This document shows positions 50,394 through 57,037 of a DNA stretch of 64,000 nt, in pieces. A program made the translations under genes and the position numbers. The notes beneath the pieces were generated by a model. It was not told where the DNA came from. It did no database searches and saw nothing but the letters and a program-made list of their open reading frames with translations. The stretch's first letter is position 1. Each line of letters begins with the position of its first letter. Source of the stretch: Phycicoccus sp. CSK15P-2 (GTDB lineage Bacteria > Actinomycetota > Actinomycetes > Actinomycetales > Dermatophilaceae); contig NZ_JAFDVE010000011.1 in assembly GCF_016888005.1 (NCBI RefSeq), positions 1 to 64,000 on the forward strand. The letters are read 5' to 3'.

Positions 50394-50693
50394 GTCGCCA
50401 CTGCCGAGGAACCCGGCCGTGGCCACCCCGGGACTCAGCGGTCGCCCCGGGCATCCTCGCCGACGAGCGCGTCACCCCGGGGTCCCGCGGGTGGCCGACC
50501 CCGTGAGAGGACCTGCGGCACTCCGAAGCACCTGGCGCCCGATGGTGTACGAAAGTTCCTGACACCACGTGTCCGACAGGTCCACACATGACACCGTGAA
50601 CGTGGCGGCGTGTTCACACACGTTCGCGGACGGAGGTCTCACCACCGCGGCGCCCGCGCGGCGAGGCGCCCACCGTCAACCCCTCCGGGCCAC

Positions 50694-50699
50694 TACGCT
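50694..50699 (+). promoter_or_regulatory. -10 of the YbaK gene, leaderless start
   Basis: TACGCT, 6 nt before the ATG at 50706. Confidence 0.5.
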
Positions 50700-50705
50700 C
50701 CCGCC

Positions 50706-51245
50706 ATGACGACCGACTCGGTCGGTGTCGCGCCGGACGACGTGCCTCCGCAGCGGGACCTCACCACGCACCGCCGGGTGGCCGCCGTGCTCGAGGTCCT
50801 GGCCCTCCACCACGTCACCCCCGAGCTGCGCCAGCTGCCCGGTGCGGTGCGGACCGCGGTGGCAGCGGCCGAGGCGCTCGGCGTCACCCCCGCCGAGATC
50901 GCGAACAGCCTCGTGTTCGTCGCGGTGCACCCCGACGGCAGCACCGAGCCGCTGCTCGTCCTGGCCTCCGGCGGGCACCGGGTCGACACGACGAAGGTCG
51001 CGGGCCTGCTCGGTCTGGCGGCCGTCGAGCAGGCCGATCCGGACTACGTCCGCGAGCACACCGGGATGGCGATCGGCGGGGTCGCGCCCGTCGCCCATCC
51101 GCAGCCGGTCCGCACCGTCGTCGACGTCACCCTCGGCCGGTACGCCACGGTGTGGGCCGCGGCCGGGCACAGCCATGCCGTCTTCGCGACGACGTACGAC
51201 GAGCTGATCCGGGTCACCGCGGGACAGCCGATGGACGTCGCCTGA
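50706..51245 (+). CDS. YbaK/EbsC-type aminoacyl-tRNA deacylase domain protein
   Basis: 179 residues, YbaK/ProX fold. ALGVTPAEIANSLVF carries the conserved Lys-like position region; LLVLASGGHRVDTTKVAGLLG and the GMAIGGVAPVAH loop are typical of the family, which hydrolyses mischarged Cys/Ala-tRNAPro. The active-site Lys seems to be replaced (IANSLVF rather than IAKTLVF), so hydrolase activity is uncertain. Convergent with the LigA-type gene, 12 bp apart. Confidence 0.8.
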   Translation: MTTDSVGVAPDDVPPQRDLTTHRRVAAVLEVLALHHVTPELRQLPGAVRTAVAAAEALGVTPAEIANSLVFVAVHPDGSTEPLLVLASGGHRVDTTKVAGLLGLAAVEQADPDYVREHTGMAIGGVAPVAHPQPVRTVVDVTLGRYATVWAAAGHSHAVFATTYDELIRVTAGQPMDVA

Positions 51246-51257
51246 GCCGCACGGCCG

Positions 51258-51620
51258 TCAGGTCGCGATGTCGGGGTACGGCAGCGACAGGTGGGCCAGC
51301 GCCTCGCCGTACGCCTTCTGGTAGGCCAGCGGCTCGTCGTGGTCGCGCTCGAACATCGCGATGAAGAGCGTGAGCGTGAGGAACGGGTGCGCGCCGAGCT
51401 CGAAGAGCGCGACGTGGTCGTGCTCGCGCAGCGCGGTCCGCTCGGCGTCGGTGAAGGCCAGCCAGGTGCTGCGCTCGTCGTCGATGCAGCTGAGGATCCG
51501 GTTCGCCTGCGTCTCCTCCCACCAGTCGACGGTGCCGACCGGGTCCTCGCGGTAGCGCTCGACGAGGTCGGGGTCGCGGTCGACGGTGAAGAGGAACTTG
51601 TCGACGAGGTACTTGCTCAC
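51258..51620 (-). CDS. LigA-type small subunit of an extradiol dioxygenase
   Basis: 120 residues, helical. SKYLVDKFLFTVDRDPDLVERYREDP and WLAFTDAERTALREHD match the protocatechuate 4,5-dioxygenase alpha subunit (LigA domain), which closes the active site of the LigB subunit. The GTG overlaps the LigB stop (GTGA at 51620-51617). Last gene of the four-gene operon. Confidence 0.87.
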   Translation of the reverse strand: MSKYLVDKFLFTVDRDPDLVERYREDPVGTVDWWEETQANRILSCIDDERSTWLAFTDAERTALREHDHVALFELGAHPFLTLTLFIAMFERDHDEPLAYQKAYGEALAHLSLPYPDIAT

Positions 51621-52480
51621 GCCGGGGCTCCTTCCGGGTACCAGGTGAAGTAGGCCTCCATCGTGTGGAAGAGGTCGAGGCTGTCGACGTGGTCGGCCCG
51701 CGCGCCGTCGCCCGCTGCGCCCATCATGAGCATGAAGTCCATGAACCCGTGGGTCGCGTTGCCCGGCGCGTGCAGGCTGTCGAGCGTCACCTCGGCGAGG
51801 CATCCCTCGACGTCCCCGCTCGCGATCCACTCGACGGCCCTGCGGTCGAACTCGGGGTCGGGGCCGTGCGGGCCGAACTGGCGCGGCCCGCCGAGCTCGA
51901 GCGAGAGGTGGCCGGTCCCGATGATCGCCACCCGCTGGTCGCTCGGCCACGACTCGACGAGCGCCCGGATCTGCCGGCCGAGCTCGACGAAGCGCTTCGG
52001 CTGCGGCAGGGGCGGCGCGAAGATGTTCGTGTAGATCGGCACGATGGGCAGGTCGGCCTCGGGGCGCAGCGTGATGATCGGGCACGTCACCGAGTGGTCG
52101 ATCCGCAGCTCGTTGCTGAAGGCGAGGTCGAAGCCGGAGTCCAGGCCGCCGCGCAGGATGTGCGAGCTCAGCTCCTCGTGCCCCTCGAGCCGGAACCTCG
52201 GGAGCCCGAACTCGCGCTCCTCGTTGTACCAGTTGGCGTCGTAGACGGGCGCCTTGCCGACGAGGAACTGCGGCATGTTGTCGAGCCACAGCTGGTGGAA
52301 GTGGTCGCTGCCGACCATGACGAGGACGTCGGGCCGGGCCCGCGTCAAGGTCTCCCGGAACCGCTCGATCTTCGCGACCCACTCGTCGGCGAACGGGGGG
52401 CGCTCGTCACCGGTCGAGGTGCTCGCGCGGTAGTAGAACGGGTGGTGCGTCGAGGCGATGACGGCGACGACCTGCGCCAT
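51617..52480 (-). CDS. LigB-type catalytic subunit of an extradiol ring-cleavage dioxygenase
   Basis: 287 residues, class III extradiol dioxygenase. Fe2+ ligands expected at H12 (STHHPF) and H60 (VGSDHFHQ), with a Glu near the C-terminus (FHTMEAYF); the second-shell catalytic His is in IIGTGHLS. Family members open catechol-type rings (protocatechuate, gallate) between C4 and C5. AAGGAG precedes the ATG. It follows a CoA-transferase and a CoA-lyase rather than ligC/I/J/K genes, so the ring substrate is open. Confidence 0.88.
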   Translation of the reverse strand: MAQVVAVIASTHHPFYYRASTSTGDERPPFADEWVAKIERFRETLTRARPDVLVMVGSDHFHQLWLDNMPQFLVGKAPVYDANWYNEEREFGLPRFRLEGHEELSSHILRGGLDSGFDLAFSNELRIDHSVTCPIITLRPEADLPIVPIYTNIFAPPLPQPKRFVELGRQIRALVESWPSDQRVAIIGTGHLSLELGGPRQFGPHGPDPEFDRRAVEWIASGDVEGCLAEVTLDSLHAPGNATHGFMDFMLMMGAAGDGARADHVDSLDLFHTMEAYFTWYPEGAPA

Positions 52481-52514
52481 TGCGGGTCTCCTTCTCGAGG
52501 GGTCGAGGGCCGGG

Positions 52515-53297
52515 TCACGACGCGGGGTCGACGTACTCGGCGTTGCGGTCGACGGTGAGGTAGGCGTCCATCCCGATGGGGCGCCGGGTCTCCTCGGCGA
52601 TCTGGCCGAGCAGGCCGGCACAGCGGGCGAGCAGCGCGAACCCGCGTAGCAGGTCGACCGGCAGCCCGAGGTCGGCCAGGGCGGCACCGCAGACGCCGGC
52701 CCCGTTGAGCGGCAGCCGGCGGCCGAGCACCTGGTCGTGGACCCGGCCGACCGCCTCGAAGAGCCGCAGGTGCGGCCCCCGTAGCCCCTCCTCGTCCGCG
52801 ATACCGACGAGCACGGGGGTGCGCGGGTCGCCGTGCTTGTGGACCGGGTGGCCGAGGCCGGGCACGTAGCGGCCGGCCTCACGCATCCGGCGGACGGCCG
52901 AGAGGGCCACCTCGTCCCAGCCGGCGTCGTCCTCCGGCAGCTCCTCGAGGTCGGCGAGGACGGCGTGCAGGAACTGGCCGCAGTCCTCGGTGACGCCGAG
53001 GAACCGGGACCCGCCACCGAGCAGCCCGGCCGCGAGCGCGCCCTGGATGGAGTCCGGGGCGGAGAGGTAGGTGAGCCGGGCGGCGATCGCGGTCGGGGTG
53101 AAACCGTGGTCGGCGAGCGCGACGAGGACCGCCTCGAAGACCCGGACCTCCGAGGGCGTCGGGCGGCGCATGGCGACGAGCCAGAACGCGAGCTCGCCGA
53201 AGCCCACCGTTCCCATGAGGTTTTCGGTGAGGTCCTGGCCGAGCAGCCGGATCTCGTCGGCACTCGACGTGCCGAGCGAGGTGGGGAACGTCGTCAT
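52515..53297 (-). CDS. Citryl-CoA lyase / citrate synthase-like protein
   Basis: 260 residues, short citrate-synthase fold as in citryl-CoA lyase (CcL). Seen: LGGGSRFLG...CGQFLHAVL (His region), GLGHPVHKHGDPRTP (catalytic His and CoA loop) and GVCGAALADLGLP. Cleaves or forms a citryl-CoA-type thioester. The ATG overlaps the CoA-transferase stop (ATGA), so the acyl-CoA made by that enzyme is the obvious substrate. True citrate synthase is unlikely at this length. Confidence 0.83.
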   Translation of the reverse strand: MTTFPTSLGTSSADEIRLLGQDLTENLMGTVGFGELAFWLVAMRRPTPSEVRVFEAVLVALADHGFTPTAIAARLTYLSAPDSIQGALAAGLLGGGSRFLGVTEDCGQFLHAVLADLEELPEDDAGWDEVALSAVRRMREAGRYVPGLGHPVHKHGDPRTPVLVGIADEEGLRGPHLRLFEAVGRVHDQVLGRRLPLNGAGVCGAALADLGLPVDLLRGFALLARCAGLLGQIAEETRRPIGMDAYLTVDRNAEYVDPAS

Positions 53298-54484
53298 CGC
53301 TGCTCCTCGGTGACGTCGGCCCGTGGGTCGTCGGCGGACGAGGCGAGCCAGCGGCGGATCTCCTCGCCGTGCTCGTCCAGCCCGGGCGGTGGGAGGTCGT
53401 AGCGGGCCTGGCTCTCGGAGAACCGGATCGGGTTGCGCACCGACGGGACGGCGGCCTCGCCCTCGCCGACGAGGACCACCGGGTCGAGCCCGACGTCCTC
53501 GGCGAACCGGACCCCGCCGTCGATCGAGTTGATCGGCCCGCAGGGCACCCCGGCGGCGATGATGTCCGAGAACCACTCCATCGCCGTGCGGGTGCCGAGG
53601 CGCTCGACGAGCAGGGGGCGCAGCTCGTCGCGGTTCGCGGTGCGGTCCTCGTTGCGGGCGAACCGGGGGTCGTCCGCGAGCTCGGGGACGCCGAGCACCT
53701 CGACGAGGCGACGGAACTGGGTGTTGTTGCCGGCCGTGACGATGAGGTCGCGGTCGGAGCACGGCAGCGGCTCGTACGGGAAGAGGCTCGGGTGGCTGTT
53801 GCCCATCCGGTGCGGGACGACCCCTCCGGCGACGAACGCGCTCGACTGGTTGACCAGCCCGGAGAGCGCCGAGGAGAGCAGGTTGACCTCGACGTGCTGG
53901 CCGCGGCCGGTGTCGTGGCGGGCGTTCAGGGCAGCGAGCACCCCGATCGTCGCGTGCAGGCCGGCCATGACGTCGAAGACCGAGATGCCGGCGCGGAACG
54001 GCTCCCCGTCGGGGGACCCGGTGAGGCTCATCAGACCCGAGATGGCCTGGACGATGAGGTCGTAGCCGGGGAGGTCCTTGCCCCCCGGGCCGCTGCCGAA
54101 GCCGCTGATCGAGGCGTAGACGATGCCGGGGTTGCCCACGGAGACGGTGTCGTAGTCGAGACCGAAGCGGGCCAGCCCCCCGGGCTTGAAGTTCTCGAGG
54201 AGGACGTCGGCGCGGCCGGCGAGCTCGCGGGCGAGGGCCAGGTCGGTCTCGTCCTTGAGGTCCAGGGCCACCGAGCGCTTGTTGCGGTTGACCCCGAGGT
54301 AGTACGTCGAGACGCCGTCGCGGACCGGAGGGCTCCACGTGCGGGTGTCGTCACCGCCGGGGGACTCGACCTTGACCACCTCGGCGCCGAGGTCGGCCAG
54401 GAGCATCGTCGCGTACGGGCCGGCGAGGATGCGCGAGAAGTCCGCGACGAGCAGCCCCGCGAGTGGTCCGGACCCCGTCGGCAT
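53294..54484 (-). CDS. CaiB/BaiF family CoA-transferase
   Basis: 396 residues, class III CoA-transferase. RILAGPYATMLLADLGAEVVKVE is the classical N-terminal signature; the catalytic Asp is D142 in LPGYDLIVQA; LENFKPG and NRNKRSVALDLK are conserved. It moves CoA between carboxylic acids through an aspartyl-CoA intermediate. GAGGAGGAG lies before the ATG at 54484. First gene of the operon, with operator copy 1 between promoter and start. Acceptor acid unknown; a tricarboxylic acid would suit the next enzyme. Confidence 0.9.
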   Translation of the reverse strand: MPTGSGPLAGLLVADFSRILAGPYATMLLADLGAEVVKVESPGGDDTRTWSPPVRDGVSTYYLGVNRNKRSVALDLKDETDLALARELAGRADVLLENFKPGGLARFGLDYDTVSVGNPGIVYASISGFGSGPGGKDLPGYDLIVQAISGLMSLTGSPDGEPFRAGISVFDVMAGLHATIGVLAALNARHDTGRGQHVEVNLLSSALSGLVNQSSAFVAGGVVPHRMGNSHPSLFPYEPLPCSDRDLIVTAGNNTQFRRLVEVLGVPELADDPRFARNEDRTANRDELRPLLVERLGTRTAMEWFSDIIAAGVPCGPINSIDGGVRFAEDVGLDPVVLVGEGEAAVPSVRNPIRFSESQARYDLPPPGLDEHGEEIRRWLASSADDPRADVTEEQR

Positions 54485-54511
54485 CCCCGTCTCCTCCTCG
54501 TCGTCGAGAAA

Positions 54512-54525
54512 CGGACACACGTCCG
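54512..54525. promoter_or_regulatory. Operator copy 1 (CGGAC-N4-GTCCG)
   Basis: CGGAC-ACAC-GTCCG, downstream of the leftward promoter and about 28 nt before the CoA-transferase ATG. Perfect 5-bp arms; same consensus as copies 2 and 3. Confidence 0.75.
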
Positions 54526-54541
54526 CCATCTGCGTCCATCG

Positions 54542-54628
54542 ATCGTCGCTCGGGCCGGACGGGCTGTCAAGGCGGGCCGCTACGAACGACCGAAGCCCTT
54601 GACAGGTCGAACACGATCGGGTGACAGT
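54542..54628. promoter_or_regulatory. Divergent promoters of the ring-cleavage cluster
   Basis: CTGTCAAGG (54564-54572) and CCTTGACAG (54597-54605) form a 9-bp perfect inverted repeat whose arms hold opposed TTGACA -35 boxes. Leftward: TTGACA, 17 bp, GACGAT (complement of 54542-54547). Rightward: TTGACA, 18 bp, GACAGT (54623-54628). Each predicted start site is followed by CGGAC-N4-GTCCG copies. Confidence 0.6.
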
Positions 54629-54636
54629 GACGTCAT

Positions 54637-54650
54637 CGGACGTCCGTCCG
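54637..54650. promoter_or_regulatory. Operator copy 2 (CGGAC-N4-GTCCG)
   Basis: CGGAC-GTCC-GTCCG, just past the predicted rightward start site; centre 19 bp from copy 3. Confidence 0.75.
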
Positions 54651-54655
54651 TCCAA

Positions 54656-54669
54656 CGGACAGACGTCCG
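54656..54669. promoter_or_regulatory. Operator copy 3 (CGGAC-N4-GTCCG)
   Basis: CGGAC-AGAC-GTCCG, 25 nt before the amidohydrolase ATG. Copies 2 and 3 together also make a 15-bp inverted repeat (54637-54651 / 54655-54669) with one mismatch. Confidence 0.75.
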
Positions 54670-54693
54670 TCATCGATGACGATGGGAGACCCG

Positions 54694-56169
54694 ATGCCGC
54701 ACGAGACCACCGACGCCCCGGCCGTCCTGTTCCGCGGGGGCACCGTCCTCCCGATGGACGACGCCCACTCCGTCCTCACCGACACCGACGTCCTCGTCGT
54801 CGGGGACCGCGTGGCCGAGGTGGGTGCGGGACTGTCCGGTCCGGACGGCACCCTCGAGGTCGACGCGTCCGGGGGCGTCGTCATGCCCGGCATGGTCGAC
54901 ACCCACCGGCACATGTGGCAGACCGCGATGCGCGGCTACGGGGCCGACTGGACGCTCACCCAGTACTTCGTCTGGTACTACCTCGAGAGCGGGAGGCACT
55001 TCCGGCCCGAGGACATCCACACCGGCAACCTCCTGTCCGCCTGGGAGTCGCTCGAGGCCGGGGTGACGACGACGGTCGACTGGTCGCACGGCCTGCAGAC
55101 CATCGACCACGGGGAGGCCGCGGTCGACGCCCTCGCCGCCGTGCCCGGCCGGTTCGTCCTCGCCTACGGCAACATCCAGGCCGGCCCCTGGGAGTGGACG
55201 GCCGACCCGGGGCTGCGCTCCTTCCTCGACCGCCGCCGCGGCGACCTCTACGGCTGGCAGCTCGCCTTCGACGTCACCGGAGACCCGGCGTTCCCGGAGA
55301 AGGCCGCGTTCGAGGCGGCCCGCGACCTCGGCCTGCCGGTGACCACCCACGCCGGGGTGTGGGGCGCGACGAACGACGACGGCATCCGGCTCATGACCGA
55401 CGCCGGGTTCGCCGACGAGTCCACCGTGTACGTCCACGCCGCGACCCTGTCGCAGGACAGCTACCACCGGATCGCCGCGACCGGCGGCTCGGTGTCGGTC
55501 TCGACCGAGTCCGAGCAGAGCGCCGGCCAGGGCTACCCGCCCACCTGGCAGGTCCGCCGGCACGACATCCCGGTGTCGCTGTCGATGGACACGAGCGTGT
55601 GGTGGAGCGGCGACCTCTTCTCCGCGATGCGCACGACGCTCGGTGCCGACCGCTCGCGCGAGCACCTCGAGGCGCACGCCACCGGAGACACCGTCACCAA
55701 CGTCCACCTGCGCGCCGAGCAGGTCGTCGACTGGGCCACCCGCGGCGGCGCCCGTGCCCTCGGCACCGACGAGATCGGACGGCTCGCTCCCGGGGCCAAG
55801 GCCGACGTCGTCCTCCTGCGCAACGACCGCTCCCCCGTGTCCTTCCCGCTGCTCAACCCGTACGGCCACGTCGCCTTCCAGGCCCAGCGCGGGGACGTCC
55901 ACACCGTGCTCGTCGACGGGAAGGTCGTCAAGCACGACGGCGCGCTCGTCGGCGTCGACCTCGCCGACCTCAGGCGCCGCGCCGAGGCGACCGTCGACCA
56001 CCTCCGCTCGGTCATGGGCGAGGAGGCCTGGACGGCCGGGATGAACCCCGCCATGCCGGACGCCGACGACAAGGTGCTGGACAACCCGTACCAGTACACC
56101 GACTTCCGCACCGACACCACGCTCGCCCGCGGCAGCATCTTCGGCGAGCCCGGGGCCGGCGAGGCGTAG
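54694..56169 (+). CDS. Amidohydrolase family protein (TrzA/SsnA-like)
   Basis: 491 residues, metal-dependent TIM-barrel hydrolase. GMVDTHRHMWQT provides H71 and H73, with further metal ligands in PVTTHAGVW and VYVHAATLS and the catalytic Asp in LSMDTSVWW; N- and C-terminal beta-sandwich pieces (VLFRGGTVLPMDD; GAKADVVLLRNDRSP). Closest in look to hydroxydechloroatrazine/8-oxoguanine-type deaminases and related amidohydrolases; the substrate is unknown, probably an N-containing ring or amide that feeds the pathway. Start ATG 54694 with GGGAG; ATGs at 54676 and 54682 are alternatives. Confidence 0.85.
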   Translation: MPHETTDAPAVLFRGGTVLPMDDAHSVLTDTDVLVVGDRVAEVGAGLSGPDGTLEVDASGGVVMPGMVDTHRHMWQTAMRGYGADWTLTQYFVWYYLESGRHFRPEDIHTGNLLSAWESLEAGVTTTVDWSHGLQTIDHGEAAVDALAAVPGRFVLAYGNIQAGPWEWTADPGLRSFLDRRRGDLYGWQLAFDVTGDPAFPEKAAFEAARDLGLPVTTHAGVWGATNDDGIRLMTDAGFADESTVYVHAATLSQDSYHRIAATGGSVSVSTESEQSAGQGYPPTWQVRRHDIPVSLSMDTSVWWSGDLFSAMRTTLGADRSREHLEAHATGDTVTNVHLRAEQVVDWATRGGARALGTDEIGRLAPGAKADVVLLRNDRSPVSFPLLNPYGHVAFQAQRGDVHTVLVDGKVVKHDGALVGVDLADLRRRAEATVDHLRSVMGEEAWTAGMNPAMPDADDKVLDNPYQYTDFRTDTTLARGSIFGEPGAGEA

Positions 56170-56186
56170 GCCGGCAGCGCGGCGCG

Positions 56187-56192
56187 TAGGGT
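56187..56192 (+). promoter_or_regulatory. Possible -10 of the IclR gene
   Basis: TAGGGT, 41 nt before the GTG at 56234, giving the regulator a promoter separate from the amidohydrolase. Confidence 0.35.
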
Positions 56193-56233
56193 CGTCGCGA
56201 CACGCAGGCGGACCCGAAGGAAGGACACACCCG

Positions 56234-57037
56234 GTGGCCGGTCGTGGGCAGAGCCCGGACTTCGTCGAGGCACTGGCACGCGGGCTCGACGTCCTCACGT
56301 GCTTCGACTCCGCGCACCCGGCACGCTCCCTCAGCGACGTCGCCGCGGCCACCGGCCTCGCCCGCCCCACGGCCCGGCGGCTCCTCCTGACGCTCGAGGA
56401 GCTGGGGTTCGTCCGCCAGACCGACGGCGTGTTCGCGCTGACCCCACGCGTGCTCGCCCTCGGGACGGCCTACGTCTCCTCGCTCGGCCTGTGGGACATC
56501 GCCCGTCCGCGGATGGAGTGGCTCGTGTCCCGCACCCACGAGTCGTCCTCGATGGCCCAGCTCGACGGGTCGGACATCGTCTACGTGGCACGCGTCGCGG
56601 TGCCGAAGATCATCTCGCTGCGGGTCGAGATCGGGACCCGCTTCCCCTCACCGCCGACCTCCCAGGGCAAGGTGCTGCTCGCGGGTCTCGACGACGACCG
56701 GCTGGCCGCGGCGCTCGCGACCCCGAGCCGGTCACCGGTCTCCCCGCGTCGGCACTGGGATCCCGAGGCGCTCGCCGAGGAGCTCCGCGGGGTCCGTGCG
56801 CGGGGCTGGGCCCTCGCCGACGAGGAGCTCGCCGCCGGAGTGCGGTCGGTCGCCGTGCCGGTCCGCGACGGCTCGGGTGCCGTGCGGGCCGCGATGAACG
56901 TGACCGTCCACGCCGCGGAGACCTCGACCGAGCGCCTCGTCGACGACCACCTGCCGCTGCTCCAACGCGCGGCCGGTGAGGTCAGCGCCGACTGGGCGCT
57001 GTGGGAGTCCCGTCCCACCACGGAGGCCCCGGCCTGA
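56234..57037 (+). CDS. IclR-family regulator (PcaR/PobR-like)
   Basis: 267 residues. It opens SPDFVEALARGLDVLTCFD, the usual start of PcaR/PcaU/PobR aromatic-pathway regulators; winged HTH at about 25-75 (SLSDVAAATGLARPTARRLLLTL), effector domain from about 90 (PPTSQGKVLLAGL; ADEELAAGVRSVAVPV). GTG start with AAGGAAGG. Placed behind the amidohydrolase, it is the likely regulator of the divergent cluster and the probable binder of the CGGAC-N4-GTCCG sites, with a ring compound as inducer (inference). Confidence 0.9.
   Translation: MAGRGQSPDFVEALARGLDVLTCFDSAHPARSLSDVAAATGLARPTARRLLLTLEELGFVRQTDGVFALTPRVLALGTAYVSSLGLWDIARPRMEWLVSRTHESSSMAQLDGSDIVYVARVAVPKIISLRVEIGTRFPSPPTSQGKVLLAGLDDDRLAAALATPSRSPVSPRRHWDPEALAEELRGVRARGWALADEELAAGVRSVAVPVRDGSGAVRAAMNVTVHAAETSTERLVDDHLPLLQRAAGEVSADWALWESRPTTEAPA

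What the first reader, a model, noticed from the sequence alone, without database searches (positions are those of the whole stretch)
51258..57037. Candidate undescribed catabolic cluster: extradiol dioxygenase + CoA-transferase + citryl-CoA lyase + amidohydrolase under an IclR regulator
Four genes overlap by ATGA or GTGA or lie within 35 bp: CaiB-type CoA-transferase, citryl-CoA-lyase-like protein, LigB, LigA. An amidohydrolase and a PcaR-like IclR gene are divergent. Canonical protocatechuate or gallate 4,5-cleavage needs LigC/LigI/LigJ/LigK-type enzymes, none of which is here. A CoA-transferase plus citryl-CoA lyase would instead let a branched tri-acid from ring cleavage be activated to a CoA ester and split to acetyl-CoA (or similar) and an oxo-acid. 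The amidohydrolase could release or deaminate the ring substrate. This is a hypothesis from family roles.
Basis: partly seen in the sequence, partly recalled or inferred. Interest (0 to 1): 0.72.

Follow-up and report, generated by a model that had tools for sequence, protein, structure and literature searches.

The report
Uncharacterised CoA-linked aromatic breakdown module
Six neighbouring genes form a conserved, probably self-regulated unit found in many actinobacteria that most likely opens an aromatic ring and splits the product through coenzyme A, using three enzymes whose usual catalytic residues have been exchanged, so it points to a degradation route that has not been worked out.

Summary
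In detail: CoA-transferase (CoAT), citryl-CoA-lyase-like (CcL), LigB and LigA genes form one operon; an amidohydrolase (AmdH) and an IclR regulator lie divergently. The set is a functional unit: all six genes occur together in 72 of 80 named loci, in changing orders, and the palindrome CGGAC-N4-GTCCG lies between the divergent genes in 53 of 55 regions. The interpretation needs changing. LigB lacks the iron ligand Glu242 and catalytic His195 of Sphingobium LigB; CcL lacks the catalytic Asp; AmdH lacks the deaminase HxxE Glu. Six variant clusters have no LigAB and carry an intradiol dioxygenase of the hydroxyquinol 1,2-dioxygenase family instead. So LigAB most likely still opens a ring, probably of a trihydroxylated aromatic, giving a diacid for CoAT and CcL. 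The genome holds a separate canonical-type LigAB/LigK operon, so this is an additional route. Substrate, cleavage mode and the CcL reaction are inferred, not shown. Ten searches of open-access papers, seen as capped lists, showed no description. Verdict: new variant of a known kind, with unusual active sites.

The parts
51258..51620 (-). LigA-like small subunit (120 aa)
   Evidence: GTGA overlap with LigB; next to LigB in 80 of 80 loci; sub-threshold PF07746 in 9 of 11 orthologues
51617..52480 (-). LigB-fold ring-cleavage protein (287 aa) with altered active site: H12, H60, H129 kept; Glu242 replaced by G245, His195 by L194; new H191 and H244
   Evidence: PF02900; alignments; model (mean pLDDT 73) closest to LigAB 1bou, then DesB
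52515..53297 (-). Citryl-CoA-lyase-like protein (CcL, 260 aa), catalytic Asp replaced by Ala (LNGAG for LNVDG)
   Evidence: NF004868 above cut-off; closest solved relative 6hxp; residue checks
53294..54484 (-). Family III (CaiB-type) CoA-transferase (CoAT, 396 aa), Asp of the ISVFD motif kept
   Evidence: PF02515 381 bits; best NCBIfam hit succinate--glutarate CoA-transferase, below its cut-off; solved relatives; residue check
54485..54675 (.). Divergent promoter region between CoAT and AmdH (191 bp)
54511..54526 (.). Operator copy 1, ACGGACACACGTCCGC
   Evidence: exact match to RCGGACRNNYGTCCGY
54636..54651 (.). Operator copy 2, one mismatch to RCGGACRNNYGTCCGY
54655..54670 (.). Operator copy 3, ACGGACAGACGTCCGT
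   Evidence: exact match to RCGGACRNNYGTCCGY
54676..56169 (+). Amidohydrolase-superfamily protein (AmdH, 497 aa; best NCBIfam hit PRK08204, below its cut-off), metal ligands kept, HxxE glutamate absent
56234..57037 (+). IclR-family regulator, PcaR/PcaU/PobR-like
   Evidence: present with the other five genes in 72 of 80 loci

Best explanation
A dedicated module for aerobic breakdown of an easily oxidised polyhydroxylated (probably trihydroxylated) aromatic. (1) Inferred: the LigAB-fold enzyme opens the ring and yields a dicarboxylic acid, the same kind of product that a hydroxyquinol-type intradiol dioxygenase gives in variant clusters. Its metal site is rebuilt: H12 and H60 stay, the carboxylate ligand is gone, and H244 or H191 is a candidate third ligand. 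(2) Inferred from family: CoAT puts CoA on the diacid; in some Actinobacteria an AMP-dependent ligase stands beside CcL instead. (3) Inferred: CcL, a citrate-synthase-fold enzyme without the catalytic Asp, breaks a C-C bond of that CoA ester to release acetyl-CoA and a C4-type acid. (4) Inferred: AmdH, or another hydrolase in some clusters, hydrolyses a precursor and feeds the route, or opens a lactone on the way. (5) The operator CGGAC-N4-GTCCG between the divergent units is shown by conservation; that the IclR protein binds it is inferred. The most likely ring type is hydroxyquinol-like, because its ring-opened product (maleylacetate type) is a beta-oxo acid that CoAT and CcL could use directly.
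For: Co-occurrence 24 of 25 for both CcL and AmdH. Operator in 53 of 55 regions, against at most 4 for any dyad in 20 shuffles; 16 of 21 exact sites of the stricter form in 12 genomes lie at the cluster, and the other 5 equal the control count of 5. Ring opening: clusters L212-L217 have CcL, CoAT, AmdH and IclR without LigAB, and none of these six genomes is in the LigB list. Next to CcL they carry a related protein: PF00775 + PF04444 in the four scanned, best solved relatives of one of them 3n9t and 1tmx, hydroxyquinol 1,2-dioxygenases, E about 1e-72, Tyr/His motif positions kept in the five aligned, the sixth found by similarity. Aromatic context in some copies: FAD hydroxylases in L111, L112 and L237; FMN_red proteins in L236 and L240; a quinone-oxidoreductase-like protein after LigA in 67 of 80 loci. 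CoA step before CcL: an acyl-CoA ligase beside CcL in six loci, family checked in two.
Against: LigB lacks the third iron ligand and the second-sphere His of known members, so oxygenase activity is not assured. CcL lacks the Asp needed by citrate-synthase-type enzymes (role recalled), so acetyl-CoA release is not assured. The replacement argument rests on six clusters (seven if G291 is counted). Few operator sites lie outside the cluster in the 12 genomes scanned, so no co-regulated hydroxylase or transporter was found and the entry compound is unknown; two of those 12 cluster-bearing genomes have no exact site at all. Reductase and hydroxylase neighbours are not universal: 13 of 80 loci have no MDR hit above 90 bits, and the window genome has no close MDR match (34-36% at best). 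The loci compared are related to one another, so conservation counts overstate independence. The LigB model is weak around the active site. No activity or growth data.
Confidence: 0.55

Rival explanations
1. One reading: LigAB is an ordinary extradiol dioxygenase and CcL an ordinary citryl-CoA lyase acting on a branched tri-acid such as a gallate-derived one. For a gallate- or pyrogallol-type ring, extradiol and intradiol cleavage can give the same diacid, which would also explain the LigAB/intradiol swap.
For: Family assignments; structure hits to LigAB and the gallate dioxygenase DesB; MetE-like proteins, a possible demethylation link, near the core in L087, L111, L112, L113, L118, L161 (PF01717 checked in L111) and beside CcL in L236.
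Against: Glu242 and His195 absent in the main-clade sequences aligned; Asp of CcL absent in the copies checked; no recognised hydratase in the core; the one intradiol partner searched is closest to hydroxyquinol enzymes.
Confidence: 0.17
2. LigAB is no longer an oxygenase but a metal-dependent hydrolase or lyase acting on the ring-cleavage product or on a cyclic diketone.
For: Loss of the iron ligand Glu and the acid/base His with strong conservation of the rest; Memo1-type structures are remote hits.
Against: An intradiol dioxygenase with its iron-site motifs stands in the same place in clusters without LigAB; DOPA dioxygenases (BvDOD) of the same superfamily work with three His ligands (PMC11926856, passages read), so loss of Glu alone need not abolish dioxygenase chemistry.
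Confidence: 0.2
3. The module belongs to biosynthesis or detoxification rather than growth on an aromatic.
For: No transporter or hydroxylase found under the same operator in the 12 genomes scanned.
Against: TRAP or branched-chain-type ABC importers beside it in three alphaproteobacterial plasmids; PcaR-type regulator.
Confidence: 0.07

Closest known systems
Protocatechuate / gallate 4,5-cleavage pathway (LigAB, LigC, LigI, LigJ, LigK; DesB)
   Same: LigB fold and subunit order; an amidohydrolase-superfamily partner; IclR/PcaR-type regulator
   Different: Iron ligand and catalytic His lost; no LigC/I/J/K in the cluster; lower part goes through CoA. The window genome holds a separate operon with fused LigAB, LigK, PobA and LigC/I/J-like genes
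Hydroxyquinol pathway (hydroxyquinol 1,2-dioxygenase, maleylacetate reductase)
   Same: Variant clusters hold an enzyme of the hydroxyquinol 1,2-dioxygenase family in place of LigAB; reductase neighbours
   Different: CoAT, CcL and AmdH instead of maleylacetate reductase; none was seen among the neighbours I scanned, but no directed search for it was made. The window genome has no match to the variant intradiol enzyme at E 1e-50
Citryl-CoA lyase / ATP-citrate lyase C-terminal domain (6hxp and others)
   Same: Fold by sequence; the His motifs DHG and PGxGH
   Different: NVDG Asp replaced by Ala or Ser in the copies checked
4,5-DOPA dioxygenases (BvDOD, YgiD)
   Same: LigB superfamily without the Glu ligand; three His bind the metal (PMC11926856, passages)
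   Different: BvDOD keeps the His195 equivalent (His175); here it is Leu; sequence and model are closer to LigB/DesB
KpiC, an amidohydrolase-family 3,4-dihydroxypyridine dioxygenase (PMC7356986, passages and section 3.4)
   Same: Amidohydrolase fold in a ring-cleavage pathway
   Different: KpiC itself opens the ring; here a ring-cleavage enzyme is present as well. The paper names an enamidase, a hypothetical urease subunit and an uncharacterised protein as its nearest reviewed relatives; AmdH was not compared with KpiC directly

Membership tests
Class III (LigAB) extradiol dioxygenases | LigB fold and subunit pairing with LigA | tested here: met
   PF02900; model nearest 1bou, TM 0.77; small subunit adjacent in 80 of 80 loci, though its similarity to LigA is sub-threshold
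Class III (LigAB) extradiol dioxygenases | Iron ligands His12, His61, Glu242 | tested here: not met
   His12 and His61 kept; Glu242 is Gly in the main clade and Gln or Gly in the sister rows
Class III (LigAB) extradiol dioxygenases | Second-sphere His127 and His195 | tested here: not met
   His127 kept (H129); His195 is Leu, with a new His three residues earlier
Class III (LigAB) extradiol dioxygenases | O2-dependent extradiol ring opening | not testable with these tools
   needs purified protein
Citryl-CoA lyase | Family membership by profile | tested here: met
   NF004868 282 bits against cut-off 193
Citryl-CoA lyase | Catalytic Asp (NVDG motif; role recalled) | tested here: not met
   NGAG in 32 of 32 rows, 16 of 16 and 17 of 17; Ser at the position in three alphaproteobacterial copies
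Family III CoA-transferase | Profile and catalytic Asp (role recalled) | tested here: met
   PF02515 381 bits; Asp of ISVFD kept
cog0402-type deaminases (amidohydrolase superfamily; group name recalled) | Metal ligands HxH, His, Asp (recalled) | tested here: met
   H77, H79, H225, D305, with H254, invariant in 24 rows
cog0402-type deaminases (amidohydrolase superfamily; group name recalled) | HxxE glutamate (role recalled) | tested here: not met
   THAGV against THLAE of 3hpa; also absent in four copies at 30-33% identity
Canonical protocatechuate 4,5-cleavage pathway | LigC/I/J/K with the LigAB | tested here: not met
   absent from the cluster; LigK and LigC/I/J-like genes lie with another LigAB in the genome

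The most novel reading that the evidence does not exclude
The LigAB-fold enzyme has become an intradiol-type ring cleaver of a hydroxyquinol-like triol, and the Asp-less citrate-synthase-fold CcL splits the CoA ester of the resulting beta-oxo diacid by adding water (hydrolytic retro-Claisen) to acetyl-CoA and a C4 diacid. That would be a hydroxyquinol route without maleylacetate reductase or beta-ketoadipate, with the cleavage mode switched inside the class III fold and a new reaction for the citrate synthase fold.
Probability: 0.18. Interest if true: 0.82.

Novelty: new variant of a known kind. Interest (0 to 1): 0.6.

Why it matters
A pattern scan of one genome for each of 84,980 species found 489 stretches that encode a relative of this LigB (organisms were shown only for the best 80, all but one labelled as Actinobacteria), and plasmids of rhizobia and others carry it too. 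It would thus be a widespread route that annotation names 'extradiol dioxygenase' and 'citryl-CoA lyase' although the active sites do not support those names. It offers a direct test of how the third iron ligand and the second-sphere His set the cleavage mode in the LigB fold, and of what a citrate-synthase fold does without its Asp.

Tried and rejected
Rejected: a canonical LigAB pathway at this locus (residues; separate canonical-type operon). Glu242 simply misaligned: the same Gly column is found with intermediates of about 30% identity and in a second alignment with partly other rows; the hmmsearch alignments end before this region. E195 or D248 as the universal third ligand: both vary. 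A wider regulon: outside the cluster the operator is at control level in 12 genomes. Within the window alone the pattern at one mismatch is not significant (4 hits, 13 of 100 shuffles have as many); the case rests on conservation. Two sites outside the cluster (L251, L254) had no module gene within 1.5 kb. Flavonoid ring-A pathways (fde/ifc): their ring-cleavage enzyme is a putative glyoxalase (PMC11069340, passages and sections 15 and 16 read), so not this LigB. PMC13118837 mentions citE only (passages). Other papers seen as passages: PMC11303751, PMC4250580, PMC12311729, PMC11264262. Neighbours of the CcL-ligase pairs gave no consistent clue. The structure model has low confidence near the active site, so I drew no geometry from it.

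Rows left out of counts: one search counts 34 main-clade loci and leaves out 8 sister loci. In one search the 8 loci without all six genes are six near contig ends and two that are not (L131, L151; L131 has an Amidohydro_3 protein beside CoAT). Of the plasmid records with LigB I read 7 of 15. The genome lists used were copied by me with identity thresholds set by eye at gaps in the listings (LigB 64%, CcL 55%, AmdH 59%, intradiol 61%). One search took only loci with AmdH and IclR on one strand and CoAT on the other (54 of 80) plus the window.
Full report
What is there. On the minus strand CoAT (53294-54484), CcL (52515-53297), LigB (51617-52480) and LigA (51258-51620) overlap or lie 34 bp apart; on the plus strand AmdH (54676-56169) and IclR (56234-57037) face away, with 191 bp between the two units. 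Family searches give PF02515, PF00285 with NF004868 above its cut-off, PF02900, PF01979, and IclR with pcaR_pcaU just below its cut-off. LigA alone has no match above cut-off; nine of eleven orthologues touch PF07746 below cut-off.

It is a unit. A search of 149 family genomes found LigB at 87% identity or more in 10, the window's own included; the next matches are at 33% and below. In 394 class genomes 25 have LigB at 64% or more and 8 a sister type at 37-44%. Of 34 main-clade loci fetched, 30 have all six genes in several orders and strands. A pattern scan of a named genome collection gave 489 stretches with a relative; of the 80 best, 72 have all six genes, 79 have CoAT and CcL, 80 have LigA. 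Of the eight without all six, six lie near contig ends. In the class sample 24 of 25 LigB-bearing genomes hold CcL and 24 of 25 hold AmdH; these genomes are related, so the p values are not to be taken literally. Genera among the 80 include Nocardioides, Kribbella, Streptomyces, Micromonospora, Nonomuraea, Geodermatophilus and Phycicoccus. Plasmid records add Rhodococcus and Alphaproteobacteria: 15 records, 11 of them at 60% or more. I read seven of these 15 regions; their gene tables are incomplete by the tool's own note. Rhodococcus NBC_00297, Sinorhizobium B11 and Martelella hold LigB, the small subunit, CoAT, CcL and an amidohydrolase; Aminobacter MSH1 holds LigB, the small subunit, CoAT and CcL with a CocE/NonD (Peptidase_S15) hydrolase and no listed amidohydrolase; two Rhizobium plasmids and the K84 relative list LigB and the small subunit without CoAT or CcL nearby.

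It has its own operator. In 55 intergenic regions between AmdH and CoAT (window plus 54 of the 80 loci) the dyad CGGAC-N4-GTCCG occurs in 53, in 40 of them twice or more; the commonest dyad in any of 20 mononucleotide shuffles reached 4. The window has three copies. The stricter form RCGGACRNNYGTCCGY has 21 sites in 12 cluster-bearing genomes, 16 of them at the cluster; the remaining 5 equal the 5 of the reversed control pattern, and two genomes have none. So the likely regulon is this cluster alone. By itself the window count at one mismatch is not significant. That the IclR protein is the binder is inferred.

The active sites are exchanged. The ligands of Sphingobium LigB are His12, His61 and Glu242, with His127 and His195 close by (PMC11926856, passages read). 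In the window LigB, H12, H60 and H129 correspond, but Glu242 is G245 and His195 is L194, while H191 and H244 are invariant in the main-clade alignments. The pattern holds at about 60% identity in Alphaproteobacteria; H191 also holds in the sister clade and the K84 relative, H244 does not. A tree puts the 31 main rows on one branch (support 100/100), apart from 17 rows of canonical or DOPA-dioxygenase type; the sister rows also lie apart from the main clade. Deep joins are uncertain because of long branches, and no characterised enzyme is among the rows; the fused LigAB of the window's own genome stands in for one. CcL reads LNGAG where 6hxp reads LNVDG, in 32 of 32 rows, 16 of 16 and 17 of 17 variant copies; three alphaproteobacterial copies have Ser there. 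AmdH keeps HxH, His and Asp metal ligands but has THAGV where 3hpa has THLAE; four copies at 30-33% identity also lack the Glu, and all share a Glu at the position of E280. CoAT keeps its Asp. The roles of these residues in the parent families are recalled, except LigB's, which come. That three enzymes show such changes together, in two phyla, suggests one common, unusual chemistry rather than decay.

The informative variants. Searching CcL and AmdH by themselves uncovered six clusters, L212-L217, with CcL, CoAT, AmdH and IclR but without LigAB; none of the six genomes is in the LigB list. Next to CcL stands a protein of about 290 residues shared by them. Four were scanned and have PF00775 and PF04444; for the one searched (L214) the best solved relatives are hydroxyquinol 1,2-dioxygenases 3n9t and 1tmx at E about 1e-72. 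Five were aligned and keep the Tyr and His motif positions of intradiol iron sites (motifs recalled); the sixth, in L217, was found at 68% identity. G291 is a possible seventh (CcL and the intradiol gene 1.3 kb apart). Across the 394 genomes this intradiol clade (61% or more) is in 9, of which 8 hold CcL. The simplest reading is non-orthologous replacement: LigAB does the same job, ring opening to a diacid. In six other loci (L220-L223, L225, L226) an acyl-CoA ligase stands beside CcL where CoAT would be (family checked in L225 and L226), which fits CoA activation before CcL. Hydrolases are the most variable part: another PRK08204-type protein (L081), Amidohydro_3 (L131), CocE/NonD (L236); and AmdH is found without CoAT, CcL or LigB in the fetched stretches L229-L231. 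I take that to mean a peripheral hydrolysis step; this is inference.

Neighbours. A quinone-oxidoreductase-like MDR protein follows LigA in 67 of 80 loci at more than 90 bits; the window genome has no close match, 34-36% at best. Two alphaproteobacterial copies have FMN_red proteins. FAD hydroxylases stand beside the core in L111 and L112 (PRK08243, below cut-off) and L237. MetE-like proteins are near the core in six actinobacterial loci (PF01717 checked in L111) and beside CcL in Aminobacter (PF01717). All fit a redox-active hydroxylated, perhaps methoxylated, aromatic. In the sister clade, read in L096 and L099, LigAB goes with CoAT, an Amidohydro_2 protein, an OsmC protein, an MDR and an NMT1-type ABC transporter, without CcL in the stretch.

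Mechanism. For a hydroxyquinol-type ring the diacid would be of the maleylacetate type, a beta-oxo acid that CoAT and CcL could use without further steps (pathway knowledge recalled). This would need LigAB to cleave between the hydroxyls. Loss of His195 is suggestive: in homoprotocatechuate dioxygenase His200, which I recall as its functional counterpart, is reported to be critical for the reaction outcome (PMC11264262, passage read; a switch to intradiol cleavage in mutants is recalled, not seen here). For gallate- or pyrogallol-type rings both cleavage modes can give the same acid, so that substrate class stays open. DOPA dioxygenases with three His ligands show that the fold can work without Glu.

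Own genome. Contig C30 holds IclR, PobA (511 bits, cut-off 351), an Amidohydro_2 protein, LigK (401 bits, cut-off 304), a second Amidohydro_2 protein, fused LigAB (PRK13366 519 bits, cut-off 317) and a GFO/IDH protein. So ordinary protocatechuate 4,5-cleavage is probably encoded there and the window module is something else.

Literature. Lists showed at most 20 rows each and were judged by titles and starts of abstracts; none was on this module. Subscription papers are mostly not held, so absence is weak evidence.

Verdict. A real, widespread catabolic module with altered active sites; substrate and products unknown. Interest 0.6.

Noticed in passing
G000:C30 (locus L192:1291-8360): A separate canonical-type protocatechuate 4,5-cleavage operon in the same genome: IclR, PobA, two Amidohydro_2 proteins, LigK, fused LigAB, GFO/IDH protein.
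   Followed up: partly
L096-L103: Sister LigAB clade, also without Glu242 and His195, with a CoA-transferase in all eight loci; in L096 and L099 also Amidohydro_2, OsmC, MDR and NMT1-type ABC transporter genes, and no CcL in the stretch.
   Followed up: partly
L220-L223, L225, L226: Asp-less CcL beside an acyl-CoA ligase (AMP-binding family checked in L225 and L226) in other Actinobacteria, with no LigB of this type in the stretch.
   Followed up: partly
L213 and L230: Two genomes of one genus share flanking genes; one holds the variant cluster, the other only AmdH.
   Followed up: no
L095 (G493): LigB, LigA and IclR with AmdH split over two pieces and no CoAT or CcL nearby: possibly a decaying module or an assembly fault.
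   Followed up: no
window 50610-51245: A tRNA-editing-domain (PF04073) gene on the plus strand lies where many relatives carry the MDR gene downstream of LigA.
   Followed up: no
L243 (Rhodococcus rhodochrous BX2 plasmid): CoAT-CcL pair beside a FAD oxidoreductase, a glyoxalase-fold protein, an alpha/beta hydrolase and Rieske dioxygenase genes, a gene mix like flavonoid ring-A clusters.
   Followed up: no
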